Shown here in pieces: positions 7,591-25,861 of a stretch of 31,030 bases of DNA. Position 1 is the stretch's first letter. The number at the start of each line of letters is the position of its first letter. Origin of the DNA: a virus; the IMG/VR virus record IMGVR_UViG_3300048592_000737, positions 1 through 31,030 of that record. One strand, written 5' to 3'. The translations under genes and the position numbers were made by a program. Under the pieces are notes generated by a model. That model was not told where the DNA came from and did no database searches. It saw nothing but the letters and a program-made list of their open reading frames with translations.

Positions 7591-8385
7591 TCAATCATCC
7601 GAGAGGCTTGCGAAGTACCCCTCCACTCTCTTAATAATCTGTTTGGCCTTACGTTTGCCAAACTTGGACTCAAGCCATACTTCGGGGCGCTTGTTGGCCT
7701 TACTTTCGTTACAGCCTCCTCGCCCGCCACAGAGGCAAACCATATTCCGGGCAACGGTCCCCGGCGAATCCGGGTCAGACAAAGCAATCCAGTGATCAGC
7801 GTGGGGGCGATGGAATAGCCCCCCGAGTGGCCGACCACACACTGCGCAGCAACCCTTAAAGTAATCAAGACAGTGCCGCCACTGTTCCGGCGTAAAGGTA
7901 TCGGGCTTGCTTACCTTGCGCGCTCTACGGCGCTGTCCCTTGACCATCCGGCGATCTGGGTTTGCTTTTTCCCAGGCGGCAGAGCGGGCATTTGCTTTGT
8001 CGCCGTGCTTCTCGCGATACCGCTTGCTGCGTTCGCGTTGCTCAGCTTTTGCCTTGTCGGGATCGGCTTCGCGCTTGATTTTTACGTATACCCGGCGACG
8101 ATCTAAGGTGCGCTTGTAGTGCGACTTTTGGTTGTCTTTGTATCGCTCTTTGTTCTCTTCTCGCCATTCGTCAGATCGTCTGCGACTTGCTGCCCTGAAT
8201 TCCGGATCCGTGTCGTATCGTTCTTTCATACGGGCGAGGATGCACTCTTTGCAGCGAGAGCACAGGCCCAGCTTGCCCCTTTTGTCAGCGTGCCAATACT
8301 CAGTCGTAGCCGGCTTCTCTTCACCGCATCGTGAACAGACTTTTGTCAGTTGTGGTTGTGGGGCTTGTGGTGTATGATCACTCAT
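7591..8385 (-). CDS. Free-standing HNH homing-type endonuclease
   Basis: A 264-residue basic protein. The start is ATG at 8385, preceded by AAAGGA 9 bases upstream; an open frame extends further but lacks a ribosome site. Near the N-terminus is a zinc-ribbon pattern CSRCGEEKP...CSRCKEC. The middle is Arg/Lys/Glu-rich and helical. The C-terminal part has the HNH core: CCAVCG, then HADHWIAL, then NMVCLC...GCNESKANKRPEVWL. It should bind and nick or cut DNA using a metal held by the HNH histidines. It is wedged between tail completion and tail tube genes and has its own promoter and hairpin leader, the hallmark of a mobile gene inserted between late genes. Confidence 0.88.
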   Translation of the reverse strand: MSDHTPQAPQPQLTKVCSRCGEEKPATTEYWHADKRGKLGLCSRCKECILARMKERYDTDPEFRAASRRRSDEWREENKERYKDNQKSHYKRTLDRRRVYVKIKREADPDKAKAEQRERSKRYREKHGDKANARSAAWEKANPDRRMVKGQRRRARKVSKPDTFTPEQWRHCLDYFKGCCAVCGRPLGGLFHRPHADHWIALSDPDSPGTVARNMVCLCGGRGGCNESKANKRPEVWLESKFGKRKAKQIIKRVEGYFASLSDD

Positions 8386-8461
8386 GTCGGCTAGTCCTTT
8401 CTCGACTAATCGGCCACGGCCTTGGGGTGTTTCCAGCACCGCCAGGGCCATCTTCTATCGT

Positions 8462-10278: not shown

Positions 10279-11331
10279 CTATGCCTCGCTCTCCAGTAGC
10301 CGCACCAGGTTGGCGGCGGTGTGCGCCCACGTCTGGTTGTCACGTATCCACGCCGCGGCGTGCTCCCCAAACTCGGCCGCTTCATCCGGGCAGTGGTAGC
10401 ACCAGCGCATGAGGTCCGCCAGCTCCTGCACGTCGGCTTTGCGCCACTCGCCAGCAATGTGCTCGAAGCGCGCCGGGATGGGTTCCAGGTGACCCTTGCG
10501 CACGGTCAGTGCCCAGAAGTCAGTAAAGCCGTCATCCATGCCGCTGTAGGCTTGGGTGATGACCGGGAGGGCACTTGCAGCAGCCTCCCGATGGGGCATC
10601 CCCCACCCTTCCGACCGCGAGGGCGCCACGAAACAATCGCCCATCGCGTAATAGTCAGCCACGTTGGGCAGGTCCTCAATCAGGATGGTGACCCGCGGGT
10701 CGGGGTTGTCGGCGCCGGCAATCAGGTCCAGCATGTCGTTACCGCCCGGCCGGCTCTTCACAATCAGCCGCACGTCGGGGGTGTCTGTCGGCGAGCCGAA
10801 CGCCCGGTAAAACGCGGCCCACACCTCCACCCAGCCCTTGCGCGCCCCGCGGTCGGCGAGGGCCAGGAACGTGTAGGTCTCAAATGGTGGCCGGCCATCG
10901 TGGCGAGACGGTAGCAGCGGGAAATCGTCAGGCTCCGTGCCCCCGTGGATGACGCTCACCGGAGCGTTGACGCCGCCCGCCCGGAACACCGTCGCGTTGT
11001 GCTGGCAGGGCACAATGACCCGGCTGACGTTCGATTCGTTGATGGTCTCGGCCCAGCCCTCGGGCAGGACCGACCCCTCGGTCATCGTGTACAGCCAGTG
11101 AGCGCCTGGCCCTGGCGTGCTCAGCAGATAGAACGGCGGCATGATGGAGATGGCCGGCGCGTGCCAGTCGATGCCCCACGCCGCTTGCAGCCAGGCCGGC
11201 GCGTGTATCTGGTCCGCCAAGAGCGCGGTTACCTCGTGGCCGGCGCGCCTGAGCGCCCGCACGAGGTAACCGGCAAAACGGCCATAGCCGTCGAATCGTC
11301 GGAAGTTCGAGCCGATGACGTTGAGTCGCAT
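10279..11331 (-). CDS. Glycosyltransferase, GT4 family (GT-B fold)
   Basis: A 350-residue protein with the N-terminal start typical of GT-B enzymes (MRLNVIGSNFRRFDGYGRFAGYLVRAL). The C-terminal half has the GT4 hallmarks: FLALADRGARKGW, then VRLIVKSRPG, and the E-x7-E motif in SRSEGWGMPHRE near residues 240-250, followed by ASALPVI. These residues bind the nucleotide-sugar donor. The gene lies between capsid and connector genes with almost no gaps, so it is co-expressed with the virion proteins. It may glycosylate capsid or tail proteins, or alter host surface glycans. The acceptor cannot be told from sequence. Confidence 0.85.
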   Translation of the reverse strand: MRLNVIGSNFRRFDGYGRFAGYLVRALRRAGHEVTALLADQIHAPAWLQAAWGIDWHAPAISIMPPFYLLSTPGPGAHWLYTMTEGSVLPEGWAETINESNVSRVIVPCQHNATVFRAGGVNAPVSVIHGGTEPDDFPLLPSRHDGRPPFETYTFLALADRGARKGWVEVWAAFYRAFGSPTDTPDVRLIVKSRPGGNDMLDLIAGADNPDPRVTILIEDLPNVADYYAMGDCFVAPSRSEGWGMPHREAAASALPVITQAYSGMDDGFTDFWALTVRKGHLEPIPARFEHIAGEWRKADVQELADLMRWCYHCPDEAAEFGEHAAAWIRDNQTWAHTAANLVRLLESEA

Positions 11332-11543: not shown

Positions 11544-12683
11544 TTAGGTGATGCTCGGGTTGACCCACGAACTGGCGCCGGCGGCAATGTAGCCAGCGAC
11601 ACCGTTGATGCGGTCATTCACGCCGACGCCATGCGTCGCCTCGAACTTGACGTAATCCAGCTCGGGATTGATGCTCTGCGTGCGCTGCGGGCTGACCATG
11701 AGGCCAAAGCCAACGCCGGCCTCGGTTCGGATGGCGAGGCCGTTGCGTGGGTTGTTGACGCCATAGCTCTTGGTCATGAACGCGTAGTCGCTCGGGATGC
11801 GGGCGTGGCTGCGAATCTCAGCCAGGCCATAGTGCGGCGACTTCCAGTAGCCAAACAACTCGCCGGGGATGCCGTCGGTTGTGCCCTGGATGACGCGCAC
11901 CGGCGCGCTGCTCGAGCCGGCCACAATCTGCACCTGGGGCGGCTCCAATGGCACGAAGAGGCCGGCGCTGGTAAATGCGCTGTACTCGGCCACGTCGGCA
12001 AAGGCCACCATCAGCGACAGCGTGCCCATGTGCCCGTGGTGGCGCATCTCGCCCATCATGCTCTCGACGAGATCGTCGTAGTCGAGCGAACTGTCATCCT
12101 TGACCACGTAGTGCGTGTGACTCGTGCCAAAGATGGTGGCACCGTACTGGGGCGGAATGTAGTTGACGTTGGTGCCGGTGCCGATGGCCCAGCCCACATC
12201 GTAGCCGCTCGAGCCGATGGCGTTTTCGGCGTTGGTGAGGGCGCGGGTGATTAAATCCTTATCAACCCGGTTGCGCCAGCGGTCGGTGATGAGTTGCAGG
12301 TCGGCGGTGATGTCGTCGCCGTAGGCCCGGCGCAAGTAGAGCGGCGTCCACTCGACCGCATCCTCGTAATCGATGAGGGGCAACATGTGGCCAATCATCG
12401 AAGCGCGCACGCCGTCCGCGCGCTTGAACTCGGCCTTGACCGGGGTCTCGCTGCGCGCGCTCTCGCCGTTGGCGTAGCGGGCGTACTGCCGTTCGGTGAT
12501 GTAGGCGATACCACCGTACTGGTTGACCAGTTGCTGGTTGATGTCGCCAATCATGGCCGCGGCCTCGCCGATGACTTGCTCGGCGGTGCGGCCGTCCTGT
12601 AATTCGAACTTTAGAATCTCGGTCGCATCCAGACCGGTGCCAATGGCCCGGTCAATCAATGCGCGTGCACCTAGTAGTGCCAT
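11544..12683 (-). CDS. Major capsid protein (HK97-fold)
   Basis: A 379-residue protein downstream of the protease/scaffold and decoration genes and upstream of the connectors, the fixed position of the major capsid protein. The N-terminal helix region (ALIDRAIGTGLDATEILKFELQDGRTAEQ) is followed by a long mixed alpha/beta body. The C-terminal half contains IRTEAGVGFGLMVSPQRTQSINPELDYVKFEATHGVGV, which resembles the P-domain/A-domain ending of HK97-like capsids. Length is within the usual range, and no insertion domain is obvious. An AGGAG-type ribosome site lies just upstream of the ATG. Confidence 0.85.
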   Translation of the reverse strand: MALLGARALIDRAIGTGLDATEILKFELQDGRTAEQVIGEAAAMIGDINQQLVNQYGGIAYITERQYARYANGESARSETPVKAEFKRADGVRASMIGHMLPLIDYEDAVEWTPLYLRRAYGDDITADLQLITDRWRNRVDKDLITRALTNAENAIGSSGYDVGWAIGTGTNVNYIPPQYGATIFGTSHTHYVVKDDSSLDYDDLVESMMGEMRHHGHMGTLSLMVAFADVAEYSAFTSAGLFVPLEPPQVQIVAGSSSAPVRVIQGTTDGIPGELFGYWKSPHYGLAEIRSHARIPSDYAFMTKSYGVNNPRNGLAIRTEAGVGFGLMVSPQRTQSINPELDYVKFEATHGVGVNDRINGVAGYIAAGASSWVNPSIT

Positions 12684-14479: not shown

Positions 14480-14677
14480 CTATCGCGTCTGCCCGTCGCT
14501 CATCTCTTCAACGAAAGCAATCAAATGCCGGCAATAGTCGAGCGGTGGCTCAAAGCCCCACCGCTCCCGAATGACCGCCTGCACCGTGGCCGCGTCGCGG
14601 CTGGCGGTGAGGCTGGCAAAGGCCGGGGCCGGTTGGGCTAGTGGTGGATTGCTGGCGGTAGAAACGGCGCGTACCAT
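14480..14677 (-). CDS. Hypothetical protein, last gene of the head-accessory operon
   Basis: A 65-residue protein. ATG 14677 is chosen because GGAGG lies 6 bases upstream; the gene overlaps the end of the glycosyltransferase gene by about 40 bases in another frame. It begins MVRAVSTASNPPLAQPAPAF and ends with a helix-rich segment (RWGFEPPLDYCRHLIAFVEEM). No family recognised. It ends directly before the promoter of the capsid module. Confidence 0.55.
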   Translation of the reverse strand: MVRAVSTASNPPLAQPAPAFASLTASRDAATVQAVIRERWGFEPPLDYCRHLIAFVEEMSDGQTR

Positions 14678-15396
14678 ACACGACCTCCAATCTTGCGAAT
14701 ATCGTCGCACAGGCCGCCGAGTACTCTTTCGTCGTAGGTTGCAGCGGCGTGGCGCAGGGCATTAGCATCGAATGCCACCATGCTGCCCACCCTCTCCATT
14801 TCGAGCAGCCCATCCCCCGTGTTGGCGGGGTGATAGGGCGGGTGGTGCTCGAAATTGCGACCCTGACAACGAAAAAAGGCGGTATCATACCAAGTGTTTT
14901 GGGGCCAGCCGCTGCGGTGCAGGATAATCGGCGGGGCCACGGCCCTGATATGACCGGCCCGCGTGCTTGGGTTGATGGCCGGGATTAACCTGTTGCCCAC
15001 CATCGTGGTAACGCGGCCAATCAGGTCAATCAGCCCGAGTGCCGTCTCGATACTCCACACCAAATCCGACTCCACCCACAGTACAACCTCGGCATCCCCC
15101 GGCAGCGCCGCCCAAATCTTCCGCCCCACACCGGCCAACTGCCGGAAGCGCTCAGCCCGCACCACCGACCCAAATATCGGCCCGCCGTGGGTCACGTCAA
15201 TCACCCGCGAGTTGAGCCGCCAGCGCATCGCCTCGAGCGTGCGCCGCGTCTCGTCGGTGCTGTCCCCCTCGCCCCACAGGCAGGTGAGGCGGTCGCCGCG
15301 CTCGGCTAGGGCGTCGTGTAGCGCCACGACCTGGGCAAGGTAGCGGGGCAGGGTCGGGGTTGAGTTGACGAAACAGGAGGCCAGGGCGATGTTCAT
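14638..15396 (-). CDS. GT-A-like glycosyltransferase
   Basis: A 252-residue protein from ATG 15396, which overlaps the upstream stop (ATGA). The N-terminus (MNIALASCFVNS) followed by a helix (YLAQVVALHDALAERGD) and GEGDSTDETRRTLEAM resembles Anp1/Mnn9-like GT-A enzymes. VVLWVESDLVW near residues 105-115 provides a DxD-like acidic motif for the metal and nucleotide sugar. A GT-type acceptor region follows (HPANTGDGLLEMERVGSMVAFDA). It is the second predicted glycosyltransferase in the structural region. Substrate unknown. Confidence 0.72.
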   Translation of the reverse strand: MNIALASCFVNSTPTLPRYLAQVVALHDALAERGDRLTCLWGEGDSTDETRRTLEAMRWRLNSRVIDVTHGGPIFGSVVRAERFRQLAGVGRKIWAALPGDAEVVLWVESDLVWSIETALGLIDLIGRVTTMVGNRLIPAINPSTRAGHIRAVAPPIILHRSGWPQNTWYDTAFFRCQGRNFEHHPPYHPANTGDGLLEMERVGSMVAFDANALRHAAATYDERVLGGLCDDIRKIGGRVWYAPFLPPAIHH

Positions 15397-15665
15397 ACAA
15401 AGCGCGCCTCGCCGGCCAGCACGCACACGGAGTCCTGCTGATACTTGGCCCGGAGCGTAGCCAATTGCTCACATAGTGGCTCCAACTCGACAATCTCGCA
15501 GACAAAGCAGACGTTCTGCCATCCGGCCCAGGTTGGCGACCCGCCGAAGAAGTGGCGGGCGGTCTCGTGGTGATTCAATAGGTTGCTAATCTCGGTGACA
15601 AAGTTGGACCATTCCCACTGTGTCAGCTTGTTGTCACTGTTGCCGGCTTGGATACTGACTAGCAT
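15393..15665 (-). CDS. Hypothetical protein (90 residues)
   Basis: Begins MLVSIQAGNSDNKLTQWEWSN and contains aromatic-rich segments (ARHFFGGSPTWAGWQNVCFVCEI) with two cysteines near the middle (CFVC) and others towards the end (LEPLCEQL, SVCVLAG). No signal peptide or membrane segment. It abuts the preceding stop directly and overlaps the glycosyltransferase by 4 bp. I do not recognise the family. Confidence 0.6.
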   Translation of the reverse strand: MLVSIQAGNSDNKLTQWEWSNFVTEISNLLNHHETARHFFGGSPTWAGWQNVCFVCEIVELEPLCEQLATLRAKYQQDSVCVLAGEARFV

Positions 15666-15860: not shown

Positions 15861-16123
15861 GCCACCGCCTCGAATTCGCCGTCAATCGTCATGCGCCCCG
15901 GTCGCTCAATCGTCCGGCGCTCAACCACCCACCGACCATAATCGGACTGCGCCCGCTCGGCTGCATCAACCGCGTACTTCGCCACCACATCTACCCCCGG
16001 CGGACGCAGCCCGCCAGTGAGCAGACTGCCAAACAGCAGCCCGTCCATTAGCGGCTTATGCAGCGCCTCGGCAAAGCGCCGGCGCTGCTCCTCCGTCAAT
16101 TGCTCCCAACGTCCTAATGTCAT
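15857..16123 (-). CDS. Hypothetical protein (88 residues)
   Basis: The likely start is ATG 16123 (MTLGRWEQLTEEQRRRFAEAL) with AGGG about 7 bases upstream. It overlaps the end of the acetyltransferase by some 68 bases in another frame. The product is helical at the N-terminus, followed by KPLMDGLLFGSLLTGGLRPPG and an acidic end (MTIDGEFEAVA). No family recognised. Confidence 0.55.
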   Translation of the reverse strand: MTLGRWEQLTEEQRRRFAEALHKPLMDGLLFGSLLTGGLRPPGVDVVAKYAVDAAERAQSDYGRWVVERRTIERPGRMTIDGEFEAVA

Positions 16124-16652
16124 CGCCAACCCTACGCTCTCCAATCTTGCGCGCCGGCACGCCGGCCACAATCGCCCACGGCGCCACGTCCTTGGTCACC
16201 ACCGCGCCCGCGGCCACAATTGCCCGGTCACCGATAGTGATGCCCGGAAGAATCACCGCGCCGGCAAACACCACCACGTACTCCCCCACCACCGTGACCG
16301 CCCGCCTGGTCGCGCCGCCGTCTTGCGGGCAGACGGCGAGGCTGGCCGTGTAGTCGGTCGCGCCGCCACAGATGACGACGTGCGAGGCGTAGCCCGAATG
16401 GTCACCCAGGATGACGGTACCGCCGCCGGCGTTCAGGTGGCAGAAGCTGGCCACGTGCACGTTGCGGCCGATGCTCAGGCCGAGGCCGCCCTCTAGTTTG
16501 CAGTGCGAGTCGATGCGGGCGCCGTCGGCAATCGAAATGACCTCTGGCCGCAGGATAACACAGTACTCGTGGATTTGCACGCCGGCCCCGAAATGGCGGT
16601 AGTGCCAGGGGGCGTGAGGTAACGAGTTGCGCGGCATACTCGTTGTGGTCAC
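16056..16652 (-). CDS. Hexapeptide-repeat acyltransferase (left-handed beta-helix)
   Basis: A 198-residue protein from GTG 16652, which overlaps the upstream TGA as GTGA. Repeats of the [LIV]-G-x4 kind are clear: VISIADGARIDSHCKLEGGLGLSIG, TVILGDHSGYASHVVI and FAGAVILPGITIGDRAIVAAGAVVTKDV, followed by PWAIVAGVPARKIG, the typical end of maltose/NodL-type O-acetyltransferases. They act as trimers using acetyl- or acyl-CoA on sugars. The first codons (TTSMPRNSLPH) are encoded by a palindromic repeat. With the two glycosyltransferases it suggests sugar decoration by the phage. Confidence 0.82.
   Translation of the reverse strand: MTTTSMPRNSLPHAPWHYRHFGAGVQIHEYCVILRPEVISIADGARIDSHCKLEGGLGLSIGRNVHVASFCHLNAGGGTVILGDHSGYASHVVICGGATDYTASLAVCPQDGGATRRAVTVVGEYVVVFAGAVILPGITIGDRAIVAAGAVVTKDVAPWAIVAGVPARKIGERRVGDDIRTLGAIDGGAAPALCRGAA
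16620..16645. repeat. ACGAGT palindromic repeat, copy B (single unit at a start codon)
   Basis: AACGAGT / ACTCGTT arms of 7 bp separated by a short GC-rich loop (TGCGCGGCAT). It covers codons just after the GTG start of the acetyltransferase and could hide the ribosome site in a hairpin. It matches half of the larger copies. Confidence 0.65.
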
Positions 16653-16906
16653 GGCTGATCCTCGGCGGCATTTTGCTCTGTCCATAGCTCGGCATACGCT
16701 CTCACCAACGCCGGCTCGCGCGTGTAGCCGGGGATGACCCCCAGAGCCCTTACCGTAATGCTATGACGCGGATTGCCGGTAAAGACAGCCCCGTAGCGCT
16801 CGTAGATTGTGTGTTTCGTGGAAACCAGGTCGACGCGGTAGCGCACGTCACCAACACTTACCATGCGATAGGCCCGCCCGCCCTGGTCATATTGTGTAAT
16901 GGCCAC
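16649..16906 (-). CDS. Hypothetical protein (85 residues)
   Basis: GTG start at 16906 with GAGG about 9 bases upstream, 7 bases after the minor head gene stop. It is beta-rich at the N-terminus (YDQGGRAYRMVSVGDVRYRVDLV), with a helix at the end (REPALVRAYAELWTEQNAAED). No family recognised; the first gene downstream of the minor head polyprotein. Confidence 0.58.
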   Translation of the reverse strand: MAITQYDQGGRAYRMVSVGDVRYRVDLVSTKHTIYERYGAVFTGNPRHSITVRALGVIPGYTREPALVRAYAELWTEQNAAEDQP

Positions 16907-16913
16907 CTAGTCC

Positions 16914-19900
16914 TCATAACTTGCGCACGTAGCGCGATTTGATGTCATCCAACAGCACCAGCAACTCGTTCTCATCATCGCCGAGATACATGGTCTTGTC
17001 AATGCCAAATCCATAAAAGCCAATCACCCGATGGAGCGGGACATCCTGTTCGGTCATATAAGACCCCTCGACCTTAATGCCCCGCAGCAGTGACGTGCTG
17101 TCTGCGGCGCCACGCTCCAGCATGGCCGTGGCCCCTTTACGTAGCTTCATGCCGTACTTTTGGAGCACATCTAGACTCTCCGTGCGGATCAGGGTGAGCA
17201 CCCCCGCTTGGGGCCGATTCCCAACCTCGACCCGGCGCAGCGTCTCATAGCTGAATGCATTCAACGCCGCCGCGTAATCGGTCACAGCGTCGTGGTCGTA
17301 CAGCTTTCGCAGATCATTCAAGCCCTGTTGGTCCCATGATGACATGTCTCGCCAGTAGTAGGTATCGCTTGGCCGATTTTTCGCCAGTGCCTCTTTTACA
17401 AGTCGGCTCCGTCCCGACCACGAGCTAAACGATTGCGAACTCGACCACTCTTTGATGAATTTTGCACCGCGTCCACCAGTGCGCTGATCGAGCTTGCTTA
17501 GGAAATCAGCATAAATGCCGGACTTGCCACGTAGGTCATCGAACTCATTGCCGTTCTCATCAACTAGCACCACATATTTCGACGTGGGATCTGACCACGT
17601 CAGGCGCTGGGGCAACCTGCCCGCCACCCCACTCGACTGAATCCAGGTATTGTGATAACTGAAACGGTCGATGTAGGTATCGACATACTTGTCGTCATGG
17701 AACGTACGATAAATCTGAGCGAGGTCGGCGGCGTGGTCAAGCCGCGCTGTCATGACACTGCGGAGCGCGGGGTCGCTAATCTGTCCCATTATAGCATCCC
17801 GCTTGCTGACAATAGCTGACAGTTGGTTAGCAATTTCCCCGTATTTCATGTTCCCAAAGACATTGAACGTCTGTTGATTAATCGCTGAATCGCGCAGCGT
17901 CCACAGTTCGTCCACATAGTTGGATAGCGCCTTGGGCGCGCCCTGCGCCCGGAAGAGCAGCGACCCGCCATTGTCGATGCGCCAAGCCTTGCCCTGGCGG
18001 TCCACGATGATGTTGTCGGCGCCCATGCCGATGACATCCCACGAGCCGAGCAGCGCGTCGGCTGCGAAGTGCTTTTGCAGTTGCCAGCGCGCCGCGGTGA
18101 GCTGGCTCCCGGTCAACTCGTTGAGCAGCCGGCCTTCGATATACTCGGCGATTTTGTACGTCGTGCCGTTGCGCTCGACCAGCCGCGCCCGCGGCACGTT
18201 GGCCCCGAGCGTGCGATAGAGTTCATCAGCCAGGTACTCGCTGCGTACGTGCGCATTGGATGACCCGCTCTTGACGACGTAGCGCGTGCCCGTGGCGTCC
18301 TCGAAGAGTTCGGCCCCCGTCGAGCCGCCCAACCGCTTGACGAATTTGAGCTGGTCCAAGTCGGGGATGGCGGCCGGCAACGGCGCGGGCGGCGCAACTG
18401 GCGCGGGCACGGGTACGCCGTAGCGCTCTGGGTAAAGCTTGCGTAGCGCCGCCTCGAGCACGTCGCGATCGCGCTGCACGTTGAGCAAGCCGGCCACCTG
18501 GTCCACGGGTACGAGTTTAACCGTTGCCGTCTCCCAGTCGGAGCGCCACGGCGCACCGCCGGTGCGCTTGGCGAGATAGTAGCGTGTGGTGCCCGTGGTG
18601 CCCTGGAAGTCGCCAACGTAGCCCGTGATTTTCGCCTGTAGCCCGGACTCCTCCCAAGCCTCTTTGAGCGCGTTCTGCTGCGGGGTCAGCCCGCTCTCTA
18701 GCCCGCCTTTAGGCCAGGTCTGCTGGTAGCCGCCAAAATGGTTGGTCGGCTCGACCACCCACATGCGGCCATCCGGCTCGACAATGACGAGGCCGGTGCT
18801 AATGCGTTGGCCGGCGGGCAGCGCCGGCTCGTCAGTGGCGACGTTGCGGAGCTTGGCCCAGTTGCGCGCCGCGGCCGGCTTGAGCGCCACCCCATTGAGC
18901 CGTTGCCCGGCATAAAGCGGGTCTTTGCCCCAGACGATGGTCGCGCCTGCATCGGTGAGCGGCGCGGGGTCCACCGGTGCCGTGGGCGCGGGTGGACGCC
19001 CGCCCCGTGCGTCCACCGGCAACGGCGGCGCCGCGGTTGGGGCAACCGTCGGCGCGGTTGCCGGGCGGGCGGCCGGCGTCTGGCCGAGCAGCAGCGCCTC
19101 AAACTCGGCGGTCTGCACGGGCCCGATTTTGTTGACCAACTCCTGGCGCGCCTTGCGAATGTCAGCGCGCAGGGCATCAATGATGGCGTCGGGGTCGGGC
19201 GTGGTGACGTAGGTGGAAAAACATAGGCAATTGTGCACCACTGCCCCACCAACGGTATAGCTATGGTCGTCAGCAACGGTCATGTTGTACACGTTGCCAG
19301 TATATTGCAATGTACTGACAGAACGGACCATGCTATAATGGTTCAGGGCTTGGGAGGGATTAGCTACCTCTCCGACAACTGAGTTTCCTGACTCAGCGCC
19401 CCACTGCTCATCAGGATCTAGTGACAGGAGACTACCATGATGACTTGCCCCATTTGCGGCACCAAGCTGCCCGACTTTCGTGGACACGATAGGGTTCACG
19501 GCGTCGCCGCCGCAAAACTCCACGCCGGCCGACTCGAGGCTGAAACCGGCAAACCCATCGGTCAATTGCTGACCGAAATCTACGTTGAGCAGCGGCTCTC
19601 TAGTAATCAAATCTTCAAAGAGTACCGTATCACCTACCGCATCCTGCGCGACCTGCTCGCTACGTGCAATATCCCTATGCGCGATAGAAGCGACGCCGTT
19701 GCCGCCAGTTGGGAGAAGGATGACGGGAGTCGCAGCGAAGCGACTGCGGATAAGATGAAGGAGACAATGGAACGATTCGATTACACCGGCGACAACAACC
19801 CAGCCAAGCGCCCAGAGGTCGCGAAAAAGATATCTGAGGCAAAGCGTGAGTCGAACCCAGGCCTGACACACTTCGCATCCTGGAATAGTCACCAGTCGCT

Positions 19901-21422
19901 CTACGGCCGTATTACGAAGAGATGCGCTTACTGCAATGAGCCATTCGAGGTAAAGAAGAGCCATGCCTATCAGCGCCACTGCTCTTTCGCTTGCGCTTGC
20001 AAGGGCGCGGACCGTAGCCAGAGCGAACTTCTCATGGCCAAAGCCCTGCGGCGGGCAAACATCGCCTTTGAGGAACAGCACCCCGTCGGCAGATTTGTCG
20101 TCGATCTTGCCATTGTCGATCTCTGCGTCGCCATCGAATGCGATGGGGCTGGGTGGCACGCCCTGAATGCTGACACCGACGCCAGACGCGACGATATACT
20201 TTTGTCTTTGGGGTGGTATACATTCCGATATAAAAGCCAGGCCATCCACCGGAGCGCCGACGCCTGCGTACAAGATCTCATCACCCGCCTTGACGCTCTC
20301 GGCATTACACCACCCAGAGCGTAACATCACCGGATGATTGCCGGTGACTTCCAACGTACCGGCATCCGTCTCGAACCGATACACTGTCCCATCGTGGGGC
20401 GTAGACCACGCCACCAACACCGGCCGGTAGCGCCCCCGATGGGTAAGCACCCAGTCACCCTCTCGAATCTCCTCAATCGGCACATTGCCGCGCAACGTCG
20501 CCACCATCTGCCCAGGCGTAACGCATTGCGGATGGGGTCTTCCAGGATAGCTCTCAATGGGGTATACACCGTCCCCGTTTGGCCCCCCGCGGGCATAGGT
20601 GTCGCAGATGTCTGGCTTAGGGTGCGATGGGGAGAGCATCCACTGGATGCCCTGCACAAATGGATTCATCGCCGCCGCCGCCCGCGTCGCCTCTGTGCTG
20701 GCCCGTGTAATCTCGGTCCGCGCCAACCGCATGGCGTCGTAACTGGCGCTCTTGCCATAGGGCGCCGACGTGCGCAGGTTGGCCCGGCTCGGCATGAGGA
20801 AGCGCTCCAGCTCCCGGCTCATGGCCAGTGCGCCCCGCCCCTCGCGGATGGCCGTCTCGAGATATAGGTCGATTTGCCGCCGCGTGTGCGCGGTCGTGTT
20901 CCACACCCGGTCACTCAGTCGGTAGCCACGCGGGTCAACCCACGTATGGGGCGCCTCGTACTGGGCCAGTGGGTTGGGCCGGAACACCTCGACCTCGCTG
21001 ACCATCGCCCGCGCCTCGGCAAACGGGTCCACCGTCCCCCGGCGCATCACCGCCAGCACATCCGCCGGCAGCCGCTTGGCCAGCATGGCCGCGTTCTGCT
21101 CGACCGGCAACCCCACCACCGTGGTGATGGCCTGCCACAAGATGCGCATGTAGGGGGAGAGGGGCAGCAGCCGACCGTTGGCCAGCAGCTCGAAGGGCGC
21201 CAACTCACCGGCGCGGTTGCGGCCGAGAAACATGGCCTGCACACGGTCGGCAGCCCGGCGCTGGAGGTCGAGGGTGGCGGCGCGGGGGACGTTGCCATCG
21301 GCATCGGCGACGCGGGCGAGGTCCGCGGTGATGCCGGCGGCGAGGTCGGCAAAGGCGCGGTTCAGCGCCCGCTCGGCAGTGGCCATTGCCGTGAGGAAGC
21401 GGCTACGGTAGGACTGAGGCAC
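16914..21422 (-). CDS. Minor head protein (Mu F/SPP1 gp7-like) with intein, Nudix-like, kinase-like and ADP-ribosyltransferase domains
   Basis: 1502 codons from GTG 21422, chosen because it follows the stop of the 55-residue gene by one base and has GAAGGTGG upstream; an ATG at 21509 would add 29 residues overlapping that gene. Residues 1-299 are a head-morphogenesis domain ending YDAMRLARTEITRAS...PSHPKPDICD...PGRPHPQ; the intein is residues 300-731 and the extein resumes CLCFSTYV. Then ~840-990 is Nudix-like (GGLESGLT...KEAWEESGL near 903-925). Residues ~1020-1200 resemble HipA/PI-kinases (GGSTGAE, YVVKSG, GADNIIVD, RIDNGGS). The last ~130 residues carry the R-S-E ADP-ribosyltransferase pattern: Arg in LIRTES ~1411, STS ~1440, E-N-E ~1484. 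After splicing the protein would be 1070 residues. It could be packaged and injected (inference). Confidence 0.85.
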   Translation of the reverse strand: MPQSYRSRFLTAMATAERALNRAFADLAAGITADLARVADADGNVPRAATLDLQRRAADRVQAMFLGRNRAGELAPFELLANGRLLPLSPYMRILWQAITTVVGLPVEQNAAMLAKRLPADVLAVMRRGTVDPFAEARAMVSEVEVFRPNPLAQYEAPHTWVDPRGYRLSDRVWNTTAHTRRQIDLYLETAIREGRGALAMSRELERFLMPSRANLRTSAPYGKSASYDAMRLARTEITRASTEATRAAAAMNPFVQGIQWMLSPSHPKPDICDTYARGGPNGDGVYPIESYPGRPHPQCVTPGQMVATLRGNVPIEEIREGDWVLTHRGRYRPVLVAWSTPHDGTVYRFETDAGTLEVTGNHPVMLRSGWCNAESVKAGDEILYAGVGAPVDGLAFISECIPPQRQKYIVASGVGVSIQGVPPSPIAFDGDAEIDNGKIDDKSADGVLFLKGDVCPPQGFGHEKFALATVRALASASERAVALIGMALLYLEWLIAVSASLRNTAVERLVTIPGCEVCQAWVRLTLCLRYLFRDLWALGWVVVAGVIESFHCLLHLIRSRFAATPVILLPTGGNGVASIAHRDIARSEQVAQDAVGDTVLFEDLITREPLLNVDFGQQLTDGFAGFSLESAGVEFCGGDAVNPIVSTKVGQLGAANGASHHGSLLSLDPDEQWGAESGNSVVGEVANPSQALNHYSMVRSVSTLQYTGNVYNMTVADDHSYTVGGAVVHNCLCFSTYVTTPDPDAIIDALRADIRKARQELVNKIGPVQTAEFEALLLGQTPAARPATAPTVAPTAAPPLPVDARGGRPPAPTAPVDPAPLTDAGATIVWGKDPLYAGQRLNGVALKPAAARNWAKLRNVATDEPALPAGQRISTGLVIVEPDGRMWVVEPTNHFGGYQQTWPKGGLESGLTPQQNALKEAWEESGLQAKITGYVGDFQGTTGTTRYYLAKRTGGAPWRSDWETATVKLVPVDQVAGLLNVQRDRDVLEAALRKLYPERYGVPVPAPVAPPAPLPAAIPDLDQLKFVKRLGGSTGAELFEDATGTRYVVKSGSSNAHVRSEYLADELYRTLGANVPRARLVERNGTTYKIAEYIEGRLLNELTGSQLTAARWQLQKHFAADALLGSWDVIGMGADNIIVDRQGKAWRIDNGGSLLFRAQGAPKALSNYVDELWTLRDSAINQQTFNVFGNMKYGEIANQLSAIVSKRDAIMGQISDPALRSVMTARLDHAADLAQIYRTFHDDKYVDTYIDRFSYHNTWIQSSGVAGRLPQRLTWSDPTSKYVVLVDENGNEFDDLRGKSGIYADFLSKLDQRTGGRGAKFIKEWSSSQSFSSWSGRSRLVKEALAKNRPSDTYYWRDMSSWDQQGLNDLRKLYDHDAVTDYAAALNAFSYETLRRVEVGNRPQAGVLTLIRTESLDVLQKYGMKLRKGATAMLERGAADSTSLLRGIKVEGSYMTEQDVPLHRVIGFYGFGIDKTMYLGDDENELLVLLDDIKSRYVRKL
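19331..19339 (+). promoter_or_regulatory. Extended -10 promoter for the antisense endonuclease
   Basis: TGC-TATAAT is a perfect extended -10 on the plus strand. No good -35 is seen at 17 bases (TGTACT), which is normal for extended -10 promoters. It lies inside the minus-strand codons of the intein's C-terminal splicing domain (NHYSMV), about 100 bases before the endonuclease ATG. The same TGnTATAATGG string precedes the HNH gene. Confidence 0.65.
19426..19430 (+). promoter_or_regulatory. Shine-Dalgarno site of the antisense endonuclease
   Basis: AGGAG spaced 6 bases from ATG 19437. It supports plus-strand translation and fixes the start, and is preceded by a small hairpin (CTGAGT / ACTCAG, about 19379-19396). 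Confidence 0.7.
19437..20324 (+). CDS. Vsr/DUF559-like (EDxHD-type) homing endonuclease encoded antisense inside the intein
   Basis: A 295-residue protein on the plus strand, the only convincing gene there. The ATG has AGGAG 7 bases upstream and an extended -10 about 100 bases upstream. In order: a zinc-finger-like start (C4-x2-C7, then H17-x3-H21), an HTH-like segment (LSSNQIFKEYRITYRILRDLL, ~54-74), a NUMOD3-like motif (TGDNNPAKRPEVAKKISEAK, ~117-136), a Cys pattern C163/C166/C182/C186, and a C-terminal nuclease fold (~194-290). Nuclease residues E197, D223 (VVDLAIVD), E234-C-D236-G-x-x-W-H241 and D252/D253 match Vsr-like PD-(D/E)XK enzymes. NUMOD plus Vsr-like nuclease is characteristic of homing enzymes, so it probably cuts the intein-free minor head gene (inference). 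Confidence 0.88.
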   Translation: MMTCPICGTKLPDFRGHDRVHGVAAAKLHAGRLEAETGKPIGQLLTEIYVEQRLSSNQIFKEYRITYRILRDLLATCNIPMRDRSDAVAASWEKDDGSRSEATADKMKETMERFDYTGDNNPAKRPEVAKKISEAKRESNPGLTHFASWNSHQSLYGRITKRCAYCNEPFEVKKSHAYQRHCSFACACKGADRSQSELLMAKALRRANIAFEEQHPVGRFVVDLAIVDLCVAIECDGAGWHALNADTDARRDDILLSLGWYTFRYKSQAIHRSADACVQDLITRLDALGITPPRA

Positions 21423-21423
21423 G

Positions 21424-21591
21424 CTACGCCACCTTCGCGCCGTCGCCCGGCTTGGGCTTCGCTTTGGCCTTGGCGGCTTTTCCGCCAGGCTTGGCGGCTT
21501 TTCCGCCATCCACCGCCGCCAACAACGCGGCCAGCAGCTCGTTGGTGCGCTGCAATTCCGCCAGCAACGCCGCGAATTGTGCCTGGTTCAT
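21424..21591 (-). CDS. Small coiled-coil, lysine-rich-tail protein (55 residues)
   Basis: MNQAQFAALLAELQRTNELLAALLAAVDGG is an amphipathic helix followed by a Lys/Ala/Pro/Gly-rich basic tail (GKAAKAKAKPKPGDGAK). The ATG overlaps the stop of the 29-residue gene (ATGA), and the stop is one base from the minor head GTG, so all are likely coupled. The basic tail could bind DNA or RNA. No family recognised. Confidence 0.6.
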   Translation of the reverse strand: MNQAQFAALLAELQRTNELLAALLAAVDGGKAAKPGGKAAKAKAKPKPGDGAKVA

Positions 21592-22872: not shown

Positions 22873-24165
22873 TTACGTTGTCGTCGAATTGGTAATCAGT
22901 CCCAGATTGGCCAGCGCGGTCAACAGGTTGGCTAACGCCGCCTCGGTATCGGACCGCGCCCCGCTGACCGTCTGTTTGGCGACCGAGGCGGCGCCGTAGA
23001 ACCCCAGTTGCACGCCCCCACTCGCCGCCCGCCAACGAATCGCCTCCTGCTCGGTGCTCGTGTAGTAGGCCGTGAGTTTACCGCGCGCTGCCCGGCTGGC
23101 ATCGGTCGCGGTCTCCCACTCGTAGACCAGGCGCCCAGCCTCGCGCCCCGCGGTGGTACTGCTCTTCAGCTGAAACTGCAACGCCCCACCAAAACCCGCG
23201 GCCGGCGTGTTGCTGCTGTTCCGTCGCAGGGTCAGCACGTTGCCGACGCTGTTGGTGCCGAGCGTCTGGGTGAAGAGCACAAAATCATCCGAGTTCTTCC
23301 ACATGTCGCCGTCATTCGGCGTGGTCGGCGCGGTGCCATTGCGGAAGCGTAGCGACGCGCGGGTCGTGGTGCCCGCGGCGAGGTCGAGCAGCGCGGTCGC
23401 GCCGGTCTGCCCCAGGCCAACGTAGCCGGGCGTCACGATGACCAGCGCCGGGTCGGTCCAGGGCGTTGAACCGGTATTGGTGCTCATCCAGTAGCGTGCT
23501 AGCACCGGCGTTCCACCCTGTACGAGCGTTACCTGCGCGCCGTGGCGAAAGACGGGTGCGGTGGCCGTGTCGTTTTGGACGTAGACATCGTTGAGCGCAA
23601 ACGAGGCGCCGCCACCGCTCGGGGCGTAGACGACGTGGGCGATGCCGGGCCGCGGGGCGTAGAGCAGCGCCACATTGAAAAGGCCGCCGGTGACGGGCGT
23701 CGTAGCCAGCAGGCTGGACGCGACCAGCACCGCGGACACGCCCGATTGCCCGATTTGCAGGCTGGCGCCCAGGTAGGCACTGCCCGCGCCGTCGTAGGTA
23801 AACCCCGCGTCACCGGCAAAGGCGCCGCTGCTGTTGTACTGTACATGGCTGGTGCTGCCACCCGGCGCCGGCATCTCGCCGAGCGTAAACGCGCCGGCGT
23901 CATTGTCCCAGACAATGGCGTAGCCGTCGGTGCCCGCACCGGGCGTGCCCGTGAAGTCGGTCGCGCCGGCCAGGGTCGATGTGCCGCCGCCACCTCCGCC
24001 ACCACCACCGCCGCTCACGTAGATTTGGGTGGGCGTGGCGGGCGGCTGCTGCGCGACAAAGCGCCCGCCGTCCCAGGTGAGGGTGACGCCCTTATCTCGC
24101 TCGGTCAGCGGGCCGGGGCCATCGGGTGCGTCTTGGATAGAGTACAGCCAAGGGTCAATTGCCAA
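22873..24165 (-). CDS. Fibre-like protein with polyglycine hinge (head or tail fibre)
   Basis: 430 residues starting at TTG 24165, supported by a near-perfect GGAGGTGA site just upstream and an 11-bp overlap with the portal gene. After an N-terminal ~50 residues follows a run of ten glycines (~53-62), then a Gly/Ala/Thr-rich body. Residues ~285-300 have the fibre motif GTAPTTPNDGDMWKNSDDF. The end (LGFYGAASVAKQTVSG ... LANLLTALANLGLIT) is a trimer tip seen in phage fibre proteins. Lying between portal and minor head, it may decorate the head or neck rather than the tail. A receptor-binding role is inference. Confidence 0.75.
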   Translation of the reverse strand: MAIDPWLYSIQDAPDGPGPLTERDKGVTLTWDGGRFVAQQPPATPTQIYVSGGGGGGGGGGTSTLAGATDFTGTPGAGTDGYAIVWDNDAGAFTLGEMPAPGGSTSHVQYNSSGAFAGDAGFTYDGAGSAYLGASLQIGQSGVSAVLVASSLLATTPVTGGLFNVALLYAPRPGIAHVVYAPSGGGASFALNDVYVQNDTATAPVFRHGAQVTLVQGGTPVLARYWMSTNTGSTPWTDPALVIVTPGYVGLGQTGATALLDLAAGTTTRASLRFRNGTAPTTPNDGDMWKNSDDFVLFTQTLGTNSVGNVLTLRRNSSNTPAAGFGGALQFQLKSSTTAGREAGRLVYEWETATDASRAARGKLTAYYTSTEQEAIRWRAASGGVQLGFYGAASVAKQTVSGARSDTEAALANLLTALANLGLITNSTTT

Positions 24166-25861
24166 CGCTCACCTCCAATAGTCGGGCACGCAACTCGCGC
24201 ACCGCTTCGACGATGGGCACGTCGGGTCTGGCCCCATCCAATTCCCACATCTGCATTACCCCATCCTGTTGCCCGTCCTGATTCTGCGCATCCATCAACG
24301 CCGCCCCAAACTGCGCATCGGTCCCCTCGGGGAATGCCGCCGCCTGCCGGGCATCCGCCTCGCTCTGTGCGGCTTCGACCTCGGCCTTGGCATCGTCCAC
24401 CAGCTCGAGCAGACCGAGCGTGGTTTCGTCGGTCAGCAAGCTTTCGCGCCGGCCCAACTCGACAAACTTGAGCCGCAGCTCCTTGTCCTCTTGCACTAGT
24501 GGCGGCCACTCGAGCGCCAGCCGACCGACCCACACGTCGGGGTCAGTGAGGGCGCGCATCTGCAACCAAATCTTGCACAGGCGCACAATCCAGCCGCCGG
24601 CGTCCATCCGCCAGCTCTGCACCTCTTTGACGAACTGGCTCTGTTGCGTGTCCGCGGTGGCGCGAGCACTGCCTAACTCCGCGCCCCACACGCTTTCGGG
24701 GATGCCGGTGTGGTCAAGCAGGAGGAGAAAGAGCGATTTGAGCGCCGTCTTCGTGTCCTCGGTAAAGCCGACCGGCGGTGACACAAACTTGGCGTCGCCA
24801 CCCTCACCGAGCAAGAGCACCGCGTTGCGGTCGAACATGAACTGTTCGCGGGTGGCGGTGTAGCCGTCCTTGTCGGTGTAGGTATCGTTGGCCGCCGGCT
24901 GGTTGGCGTTTTTGATGGCGTTGAGGTCTTTGAGACCCACGAACGCCGGAATGGGGTTGCCAAGCAACGCGGCGCCGTCCAACTGTTTGTACAGAATGTC
25001 ATCGTAGCGGTCGTACAGCTCGAGCAGCTCCTCGTGCACCGGGTGGCCGTTGGTCTCGTTGGTGCTGCGGCCGTGGGCAATGTGCACAATGGGGATGCGG
25101 CCAATCAGGTTCTGGTACTCATCGACGCTGACGACGTTGGCGCCCTCGGTGACGGTGACCGTGCGGCCATCGGCGCGGTATTCGTCGGTGATGGTCGCCT
25201 TGTCAGTCTTGGTCGTGACGGTGACCGAGAGCCACCGCCGATAGTCCATGGGGTCGCGGGCAATCGTGACCGTCTCGGGCGAGGGCACGCTAATCGAGCC
25301 GTCGGCGTTGACAATCAGGTACAGGTCGCCTAGCCCCATGGCGTCGCAGTACGATGACTGCAACAGCGACTGGCTGCGGTCGTCGCGGTCGGGGTCGCTC
25401 TCTTCGTCGTCAGTGTCCGCGCCGGCATCCAGCAGGCTCTGCACAAACTCCTGCAACACTGCGTTCGTGTGGTCGCGCCGTTCGGCGGGGATGCTCTCCG
25501 CGCTCGACTCGTACAGCTCGACCGTGAGGCCATCGCCGAGCACCCAACTGGCCACCACCCGCTCGAGCCGCTTGGCGAAGAGGCCGCCGAGCCGATAGCC
25601 CGCGGCCTTGCCGCGGCGTAGGCGGTCGTAGAACTCGTAGTCAGGCACGGTGTAATCGACCGAGACCGGCCGGGCGCGGCTGCGGAAGAGCGCGTACTGA
25701 ATCTCGGGGTAGGCGGTGCGGCCGATGAGTTCGGAGACGACGGTTAGGCCCAGCGCGCGGCTGGCGGTCTCGCGGATGCGGGATAGGATGGTGGGGTGGT
25801 TAGCGGCCACGGCGGCCTCCTGCGGTGCGGTCACGCCGAGTTCCTCCGGGATACTCGGCAC
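24155..25861 (-). CDS. Portal protein
   Basis: 568 residues directly after the large terminase, overlapping it by 61 bases from GTG 25861. It contains the portal-type region FAKRLERVVASWVLGDGLTVEL, later IPIVHIAHGRSTNETNGHPVHEELLELYDRYDDILYKQ and SLFLLLLDHTGIPESVWGAELGSARATADTQQSQFVKEV, and an acidic helical C-terminus. These are typical of SPP1-gp6-like portals. The dodecameric ring forms the DNA gateway and docks the terminase. The N-terminal codons (PSIPEELGV) contain a short copy of the palindromic repeat, so the first residues may be recent. Confidence 0.88.
   Translation of the reverse strand: MPSIPEELGVTAPQEAAVAANHPTILSRIRETASRALGLTVVSELIGRTAYPEIQYALFRSRARPVSVDYTVPDYEFYDRLRRGKAAGYRLGGLFAKRLERVVASWVLGDGLTVELYESSAESIPAERRDHTNAVLQEFVQSLLDAGADTDDEESDPDRDDRSQSLLQSSYCDAMGLGDLYLIVNADGSISVPSPETVTIARDPMDYRRWLSVTVTTKTDKATITDEYRADGRTVTVTEGANVVSVDEYQNLIGRIPIVHIAHGRSTNETNGHPVHEELLELYDRYDDILYKQLDGAALLGNPIPAFVGLKDLNAIKNANQPAANDTYTDKDGYTATREQFMFDRNAVLLLGEGGDAKFVSPPVGFTEDTKTALKSLFLLLLDHTGIPESVWGAELGSARATADTQQSQFVKEVQSWRMDAGGWIVRLCKIWLQMRALTDPDVWVGRLALEWPPLVQEDKELRLKFVELGRRESLLTDETTLGLLELVDDAKAEVEAAQSEADARQAAAFPEGTDAQFGAALMDAQNQDGQQDGVMQMWELDGARPDVPIVEAVRELRARLLEVSVGN

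What the first reader, a model, noticed from the sequence alone, without database searches (positions are those of the whole stretch)
16914..21422. Minor head protein fused to Nudix-like, kinase-like and ADP-ribosyltransferase domains
After a Mu-F/gp7-like domain the extein continues through a Nudix box, a HipA/PI-kinase-like domain with P-loop-like GGSTGAE, Lys in YVVKSG, GADNIIVD and RIDNGGS, then an R-S-E ART pattern (LIRTES, STSLLRG, ENE). T4 packages the ADP-ribosyltransferase Alt, and some minor head proteins carry ART domains; three enzyme-like modules on one head protein is unusual. Inference: an injected multi-effector that modifies host proteins or nucleotides at the start of infection.
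Basis: partly seen in the sequence, partly recalled or inferred. Interest (0 to 1): 0.88.

Follow-up and report, generated by a model that had tools for sequence, protein, structure and literature searches.

The report
Phage head protein carrying three enzymes
A virus of bacteria appears to build three different enzyme modules into one protein of its head, probably to send them into the host cell with its DNA, and one of the three (a kinase) belongs to a widespread phage family that the family libraries searched here do not describe.

Summary
The gene is on the MINUS strand, 16914-21509, 1531 codons. Without its intein (residues 329-760) it encodes a MuF minor head domain, a Nudix domain (PF00293, E=1e-11), a protein-kinase-fold domain and a C-terminal ADP-ribosyltransferase-like (ART) domain. 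The kinase reaches no curated family, but a confident model (pLDDT 88.9) matches H. pylori CtkA (Z 14.5) and actin-fragmin kinase (Z 11.7); five active-site residues are each kept in 128-129 of 130 relatives. The ART has an invariant R-S-ExE set in 21 of 21 sequences and resembles solved ARTs, but weakly (best Z 5.4). The combination recurs: of 129 loci fetched by the kinase alone, 68 carry an ART and 30 the same Nudix type nearby, against 6 and 2 of 76 MuF-anchored control loci. All four domains in one ORF occur in 3 of 142; relatives split them into neighbouring genes, annotated particle-associated in Yersinia phage fHe-Yen8-01. Best reading: a virion-carried multi-enzyme effector. Packaging, injection, activities and targets are inferred. 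New variant of a known kind.

The parts
16914..21509 (-). whole gene, 1531 codons plus stop: MuF, intein, Nudix, kinase-fold, ART-like
   Evidence: one open frame
20526..21509 (-). N-extein, residues 1-328: MuF/SPP1 gp7-like minor head domain (core 192-330)
   Evidence: PHROG 1657 E=2.6e-37; tblastn to 50 phage records incl. MuF-like minor capsid proteins
19230..20525 (-). intein, residues 329-760, inserted before CLC of the HPxCxC signature
   Evidence: PT-HINT 6.3e-8, Intein_splicing 7.8e-7; TIGR01445 and TIGR01443 below cut-off
16917..19229 (-). C-extein, residues 761-1531
18456..18806 (-). Nudix domain, residues 902-1018, metal-binding Glu 950, 953, 954
   Evidence: PF00293 45.4 bits, cut-off 21.1; alignment of 34
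17700..18368 (-). kinase-fold domain, residues about 1048-1270; K1080, E1091, D1158, N1166, D1179
   Evidence: alignments, model, CtkA Z 14.5, conservation in 130 rows
16917..17681 (-). ART-like domain, residues 1277-1531; R1442, S1471, E1513, E1515
   Evidence: 21 of 21 invariant; model pLDDT 88.2; ARTs fill ranks 1-35, best Z 5.4
24155..25861 (-). portal gene upstream (context)
   Evidence: PHROG 64 E=2.2e-11
11544..12683 (-). major head protein gene downstream (context)
   Evidence: PHROG 3990 E=2.1e-17

Best explanation
A minor head protein of a tailed phage that, once its intein has spliced out, carries three enzyme modules into the virion: its MuF domain would place a few copies near the portal, and the protein would leave with the DNA. 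In the new host the ART would transfer ADP-ribose from NAD to host macromolecules (ExE suggests arginine; recalled), the CtkA/actin-fragmin-kinase-like domain would phosphorylate host proteins, and the Nudix domain would hydrolyse a nucleotide-type substrate (profile nearest to Ap4A hydrolase). Shown: frame, domains, conserved active-site residues, fold of the kinase and (weaker) of the ART, gene position, recurrent linkage. Inferred: splicing, packaging, ejection, activities, targets.
For: MuF fusion between portal and major head protein genes. Kinase fold (CtkA Z 14.5 over 208 residues) with K1080 128/130, E1091 128/130, D1158 129/130, N1166 129/130, D1179 129/130. ART R-S-ExE in 21 of 21 and ART rows at ranks 1-35 of the fold comparison. 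Nudix metal-binding Glu conserved in 34. Linkage: 68 of 129 kinase-fetched loci with ART and 30 of 129 with Nudix, against 6 and 2 of 76 MuF-anchored controls. MuF in the same ORF in 40 of 142. Split versions next to head genes. In fHe-Yen8-01 the kinase-ART gene, the small gene after it and the Nudix gene are annotated as particle-associated.
Against: No proteomics or activity for this phage. The ART is not recognised by Pfam, PHROGs or profile comparison, Foldseek gave no E<=0.001 and Z is below 8. The window's kinase alone has Ser at 1156 where 129 of 130 have Asn. Two Nudix box positions deviate. 35 of 142 kinase loci show none of ART, Nudix or MuF. The particle-associated label could not be traced to data.
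Confidence: 0.68

Rival explanations
1. The enzymes act inside the producing cell, for example on capsid, portal or ejection proteins during assembly, or on the host to exclude other phages late in infection, and not in the next host.
For: The gene lies among late head genes; PMC8008677 (passages) proposed superinfection immunity for a HipA-like kinase encoded between portal and capsid genes.
Against: A fixed link to MuF is not needed for that (40 of 142 in the same ORF); relatives are annotated particle-associated.
Confidence: 0.17
2. One or more of the modules is a non-catalytic remnant used for binding only, the Nudix or the ART being the likeliest.
For: Nudix box deviations, weak ART fold scores, Ser 1156.
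Against: Metal-binding Glu, the R-S-ExE set and five kinase residues are kept.
Confidence: 0.25
3. A MuF polymorphic toxin used against competing bacteria, with an immunity gene in the producer.
For: ART is a frequent toxin domain on MuF proteins (PMC5576092 passages).
Against: The next gene is a hexapeptide-repeat transferase-like protein, not a recognisable immunity gene; the window is a 31-kb record and lifestyle is unknown.
Confidence: 0.06

Closest known systems
MuF-ART and MuF/portal-Nudix (NudE-type) fusions (PMC9503650; passages and section 3.7.1 read)
   Same: MuF fused to ART or Nudix, predicted to be packaged in the head and injected
   Different: the passages read describe no protein with kinase, ART and Nudix together; the Nudix here is nearest to Ap4A hydrolase by profile, not the NudE type
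T4 Alt (as described in PMC5512222 and PMC9503650 passages)
   Same: ART carried in the head; R-S-E type residues
   Different: no Alt-family match for the window ART; MuF, Nudix and kinase added
HipA-like kinase of Gratiaviridae phages (PMC8008677 passages)
   Same: distant HipA-type kinase encoded between portal and capsid genes of tailed phages
   Different: interpreted there as superinfection immunity; membership of that kinase in this family not tested
H. pylori CtkA and Physarum actin-fragmin kinase
   Same: fold of the kinase domain (Z 14.5 and 11.7)
   Different: 17-21% identity over the aligned residues; phage head proteins with other partners
Polyvalent proteins (PMC5512222 passages)
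   Same: several effector domains on one injected polypeptide
   Different: their kinase group is described as lacking the C-terminal subdomain; 'HipA' does not occur in the paper
MuF polymorphic toxins (PMC5576092 passages)
   Same: MuF with a C-terminal ART in part of the cases
   Different: no kinase or Nudix mentioned in that paper (0 occurrences of each)

Membership tests
MuF / SPP1 gp7 minor head proteins | sequence match to the family | tested here: met
   PHROG 1657 E=2.6e-37 at 192-330
MuF / SPP1 gp7 minor head proteins | HPxCxC-type signature after splicing; gene between portal and major head protein | tested here: met
   HPQ|CLC at the intein borders; gene order
Nudix hydrolases | Pfam cut-off and metal-binding Glu of the box | tested here: met
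   45.4 bits against 21.1; E950, E953, E954, with Leu and Lys at two other box positions
HipA kinases (HipA_C) | Pfam cut-off | tested here: not met
   13.3 bits against 30.5, E=0.066
CtkA / actin-fragmin / PI3-4 kinase-type fold | fold and conserved K, E, D, N, D | tested here: met
   assignment of roles to the residues is by analogy (recalled)
Protein kinases | phosphotransfer activity | not testable with these tools
   needs a bench assay
ADP-ribosyltransferases, R-S-E clade | R, S and ExE at the expected elements | tested here: met
   R1442, S1471, E1513/E1515 in 21 of 21, placed in or at strands of the model; expected layout recalled
ADP-ribosyltransferases, R-S-E clade | fold match to solved ARTs | tested here: inconclusive
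   ranks 1-35 are ARTs but best Z 5.4; Foldseek no E<=0.001
Virion-injected effectors (T4 Alt type) | presence in virions and entry with DNA | not tested
   only the annotation of a relative
MuF polymorphic toxins | immunity gene and temperate phage | tested here: inconclusive
   no immunity candidate by Pfam next door; 31-kb record only
Inteins | Hint domain with Cys at position 1 and His-Asn before Cys +1 | tested here: met
   C329, HN759-760, C761; splicing itself not tested

The most novel reading that the evidence does not exclude
A widespread, uncatalogued phage system: a virion-carried atypical kinase that works as one unit with an ADP-ribosyltransferase and an Ap4A-hydrolase-like Nudix enzyme, delivered either as one MuF-anchored chain (as here) or as neighbouring particle proteins. 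It would couple phosphorylation of host proteins, ADP-ribosylation of host macromolecules and removal of a nucleotide signal in the first minutes of infection.
Probability: 0.4. Interest if true: 0.8.

Novelty: new variant of a known kind. Interest (0 to 1): 0.63.

Why it matters
The passage read in PMC8008677 counts only two characterised phage protein kinases (T7 and 933W). Here is a kinase family with 456 relatives among 491 pattern hits in IMG/VR, active-site residues almost invariant, no curated family for the members scanned in Pfam, NCBIfam or PHROGs, and steady partners (ART, Nudix, MuF). If it rides in the virion it offers a second early protein-modification route beside T4 Alt-type ADP-ribosylation, and the fused and split versions make the three-enzyme partnership directly testable.

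Tried and rejected
Tried, led nowhere: single-protein scans of IMG/VR with the whole C-extein and with the Nudix found no relatives. Profile comparison of the window-type ART with the PF03496-type ART of relatives failed (probability 0.4 on a scale of 100). Foldseek with the ART model gave no E<=0.001. PDB sequence profiles gave no kinase or ART relative at a convincing E-value; CtkA appeared at E=0.52. No paper on fHe-Yen8-01 is held and a second search led nowhere. A synonymous-codon shuffle for the antisense ORF was uninformative because the two frames are in codon register; a codon-usage estimate replaced it. HD, SNF2/DEAD helicase and other domains follow the kinase in some of 40 ORFs without a detected ART; not pursued.

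Considered and rejected: chance motifs (conservation and fold exclude this for the kinase); filing the kinase as HipA (cut-off not met); filing the Nudix as NudE/ADP-ribose type (profile nearest Ap4A hydrolase 3i7u, E=6e-23; ADP-sugar pyrophosphatases about 4e-7).

Biases: kinase loci were fetched with patterns DAWL[GA]NW(D) and xR[VI]D[ATN]GG[SA]L, so conservation of D1151, N1156, W1157, D1158, R1177, D1179 and the following GG is partly by selection; K1080, E1091 and N1166 are not in the patterns. The ART and Nudix profiles of the linkage test were trained partly on kinase neighbours, which favours the kinase set. Loci include near-identical contigs: 129 form 99 clusters at 80%, 55 with ART, 23 with Nudix, 46 with MuF. 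Phage-record loci were left out of the final test because some were fetched by Nudix identity. Rows dropped before counts: L001 (the window's own stretch); in the MuF control 4 of 80 loci from seed contigs. A4 (35 ORFs) and A6 (40 of 53 eligible ORF ends) were chosen subsets.

Full report
WHAT IS THERE. The gene is read on the minus strand from 21509 to 16914, 1531 codons without a stop. It lies in a head module: terminase and portal upstream, major head protein downstream, all on the same strand. G000 is a 31030-base virus record, so the window is all that is held. Residues 1-328 and 761-1531 are the exteins of a protein split by an intein at 329-760. The N-extein is a MuF/gp7 minor head domain (PHROG 1657, E=2.6e-37; 50 phage records by tblastn). 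The intein sits between HPQ and CLC; joined, these restore the HPxCxC signature seen in many other MuF domains, which argues for true splicing.

NUDIX. Residues 902-1018 match PF00293 at 45.4 bits against a cut-off of 21.1. In 34 aligned sequences Glu 950 and 954 are invariant and 953 nearly so. Two box positions deviate in the window (Leu for the first Glu, Lys for Arg; box consensus recalled). The profile of the 34 is nearest to Ap4A hydrolase 3i7u (E=6e-23), then CTP pyrophosphohydrolase, with RppH and diphosphoinositol hydrolases near 1e-9 and ADP-sugar pyrophosphatases at about 4e-7. This leans away from the NudE/ADP-ribose type named for other head fusions in PMC9503650 (passages).

KINASE. 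Residues 1048-1270 reach no curated cut-off in Pfam (HipA_C 13.3 of 30.5 bits), and no NCBIfam family or PHROG is listed for this part. Among 35 relatives one reaches PI3_PI4_kinase at E=1e-5. The AlphaFold model of residues 1046-1531 on 21 sequences has mean pLDDT 88.9. VIA-align ranks three CtkA structures first (best Z 14.5, rmsd 3.6 over 208 residues), then actin-fragmin kinase (Z 11.7 over 201 residues), then RIO kinases at about 11. In 130 distinct family rows K1080 is kept in 128, E1091 in 128, D1158 in 129, N1166 in 129 and D1179 in 129; one row, the window, has Ser at 1156 where 129 have Asn.

ART. Residues 1277-1531 match no family by sequence. R1442, T1443, S1471, E1513, N1514 and E1515 are invariant in 21 of 21 sequences. 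In the model of this part alone (pLDDT 88.2) R lies in one strand, S in another and the ExE at the start of a third, as in R-S-E ARTs (layout recalled). VIA-align lists ADP-ribosyltransferases at ranks 1-35 (Z 5.4 to 4.1), followed by further ART rows, anthrax lethal factor (which has an ART-like region, recalled) and XopAI; but Z is low, and Foldseek alone found nothing at E<=0.001. The wider kinase family mostly has a different, Pfam-recognised ART (PF03496) in the same place; a direct profile comparison of the two types failed. I take the ART as likely, not proven.

RELATIVES. tblastn of the C-extein against 50,697 phage records gave 22 records. Seven of those inspected (Yersinia fHe-Yen8-01, Enterobacter phiT5282EW, Pseudomonas Jeremy, Dolphis and Touem01, Aeromonas ST4, Morganella Mecenats66) have a kinase-ART gene, one small gene, then a separate Nudix gene 41-51% identical to the window's Nudix. 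In fHe-Yen8-01 these three genes are all annotated particle-associated. Four Gordonia phages inspected have the kinase gene right after the portal gene; in Mareelih and Sixama an ART gene is close by. A profile scan of IMG/VR gave 491 pattern hits of which 456 encode relatives (80 kept); GTDB genomes gave 49 of 60; plasmids gave 3 records. In the P. juntendi plasmid a phage minor head gene (MuF by profile) is followed directly by a 1466-aa Nudix-kinase-ART gene and then protease, cement and capsid genes.

COUNTS. In 142 sources with the kinase (141 of 143 fetched loci, plus the window) ART is in the same ORF in 75 and elsewhere in the locus in 3; the Nudix is in the same ORF in 20 and elsewhere in 18; MuF is in the same ORF in 40 and elsewhere in 18; 107 show at least one of these and 35 none. 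MuF, Nudix, kinase and ART in one ORF occur in 3: the window, L039 and L087. Only the window among 35 scanned members has an intein by Pfam. Control: 80 loci fetched by the MuF domain; leaving out 4 seed contigs, 6 of 76 have an ART, 2 of 76 the Nudix and 2 of 76 the kinase. Against the 129 IMG/VR and GTDB kinase loci (68 with ART, 30 with Nudix) Fisher's p is 1e-11 and 4e-5. The profiles favour the kinase set and the loci are not independent; dereplicated at 80% there are 99 clusters, 55 with ART, 23 with Nudix and 46 with MuF.

MECHANISM. Best supported: a virion-carried multi-enzyme effector. Position, MuF anchor, fused-or-adjacent partners and the annotation of a relative support carriage; conserved catalytic residues support activity. 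[quoted passage not shown] an effector carried in so few copies would have to be catalytic, as these modules appear to be. Targets are unknown. [quoted passage not shown] carriage in the head would remove that objection.

KNOWN AND NEW. MuF-ART and MuF-Nudix fusions, and multi-domain injected 'polyvalent' proteins, are known (PMC9503650 passages and section 3.7.1; PMC5512222 passages). The passages read mention no HipA/CtkA-like kinase in such proteins, and 'HipA' occurs in neither paper. A search for the combination returned only those two papers; 'actin-fragmin kinase' with 'phage' returned none; CtkA/HipA-like with phage led to the Gratiaviridae paper. PMC7824862 and PMC3482391 passages showed no such fusion. 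The library holds only open papers, so absence in print is not established. Verdict: new variant of a known kind, with an uncatalogued kinase family as its most interesting part.

Noticed in passing
window 19437-20324 (+), inside the intein 19230-20525 (-): An antisense ORF of 295 aa with a DUF559/MTES_1575 nuclease domain (E=2.9e-13) lies wholly inside the intein of the minus-strand gene, in codon register with it: that antisense frame has no stop, the other two have 10 and 11. It uses none of TTA, CTA, TCA; about 3.3 expected from other genes of the window, P about 0.03. No match in 50,697 phage records. It looks like a homing endonuclease gene encoded on the opposite strand of an intein.
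   Followed up: partly
window 10279-11331, 14638-15426 and 16056-16685 (-): Among the head genes lie a glycosyltransferase (PF00534 2.8e-10, also GT4-conflict 1.1e-6), an unassigned 262-aa ORF, and a hexapeptide-repeat transferase-like gene right after the effector gene.
   Followed up: no
window 7591-8451 (-): Free-standing endonuclease VII-like/HNH gene (PHROG 1035, E=5.9e-25) among later genes.
   Followed up: no
L112, L117, L131, L137: Four Pseudomonas chromosomes (syringae group and others) carry kinase and Nudix fused in the opposite order, kinase first.
   Followed up: no
L058:4808-8818: A protein with two ART matches flanking a Nudix and the kinase, and a further ART ORF next to it.
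   Followed up: no
40 kinase ORF ends of alignment A6: After the kinase, some members carry HD (4), helicase-type (3) or DUF3626 (4) domains and one an ART-PolyVal domain, so the kinase also sits in other polyvalent-like proteins.
   Followed up: no
window 18040-18042, residue 1156: The window's kinase has Ser where 129 of 130 distinct family rows have Asn in the NWD motif.
   Followed up: no
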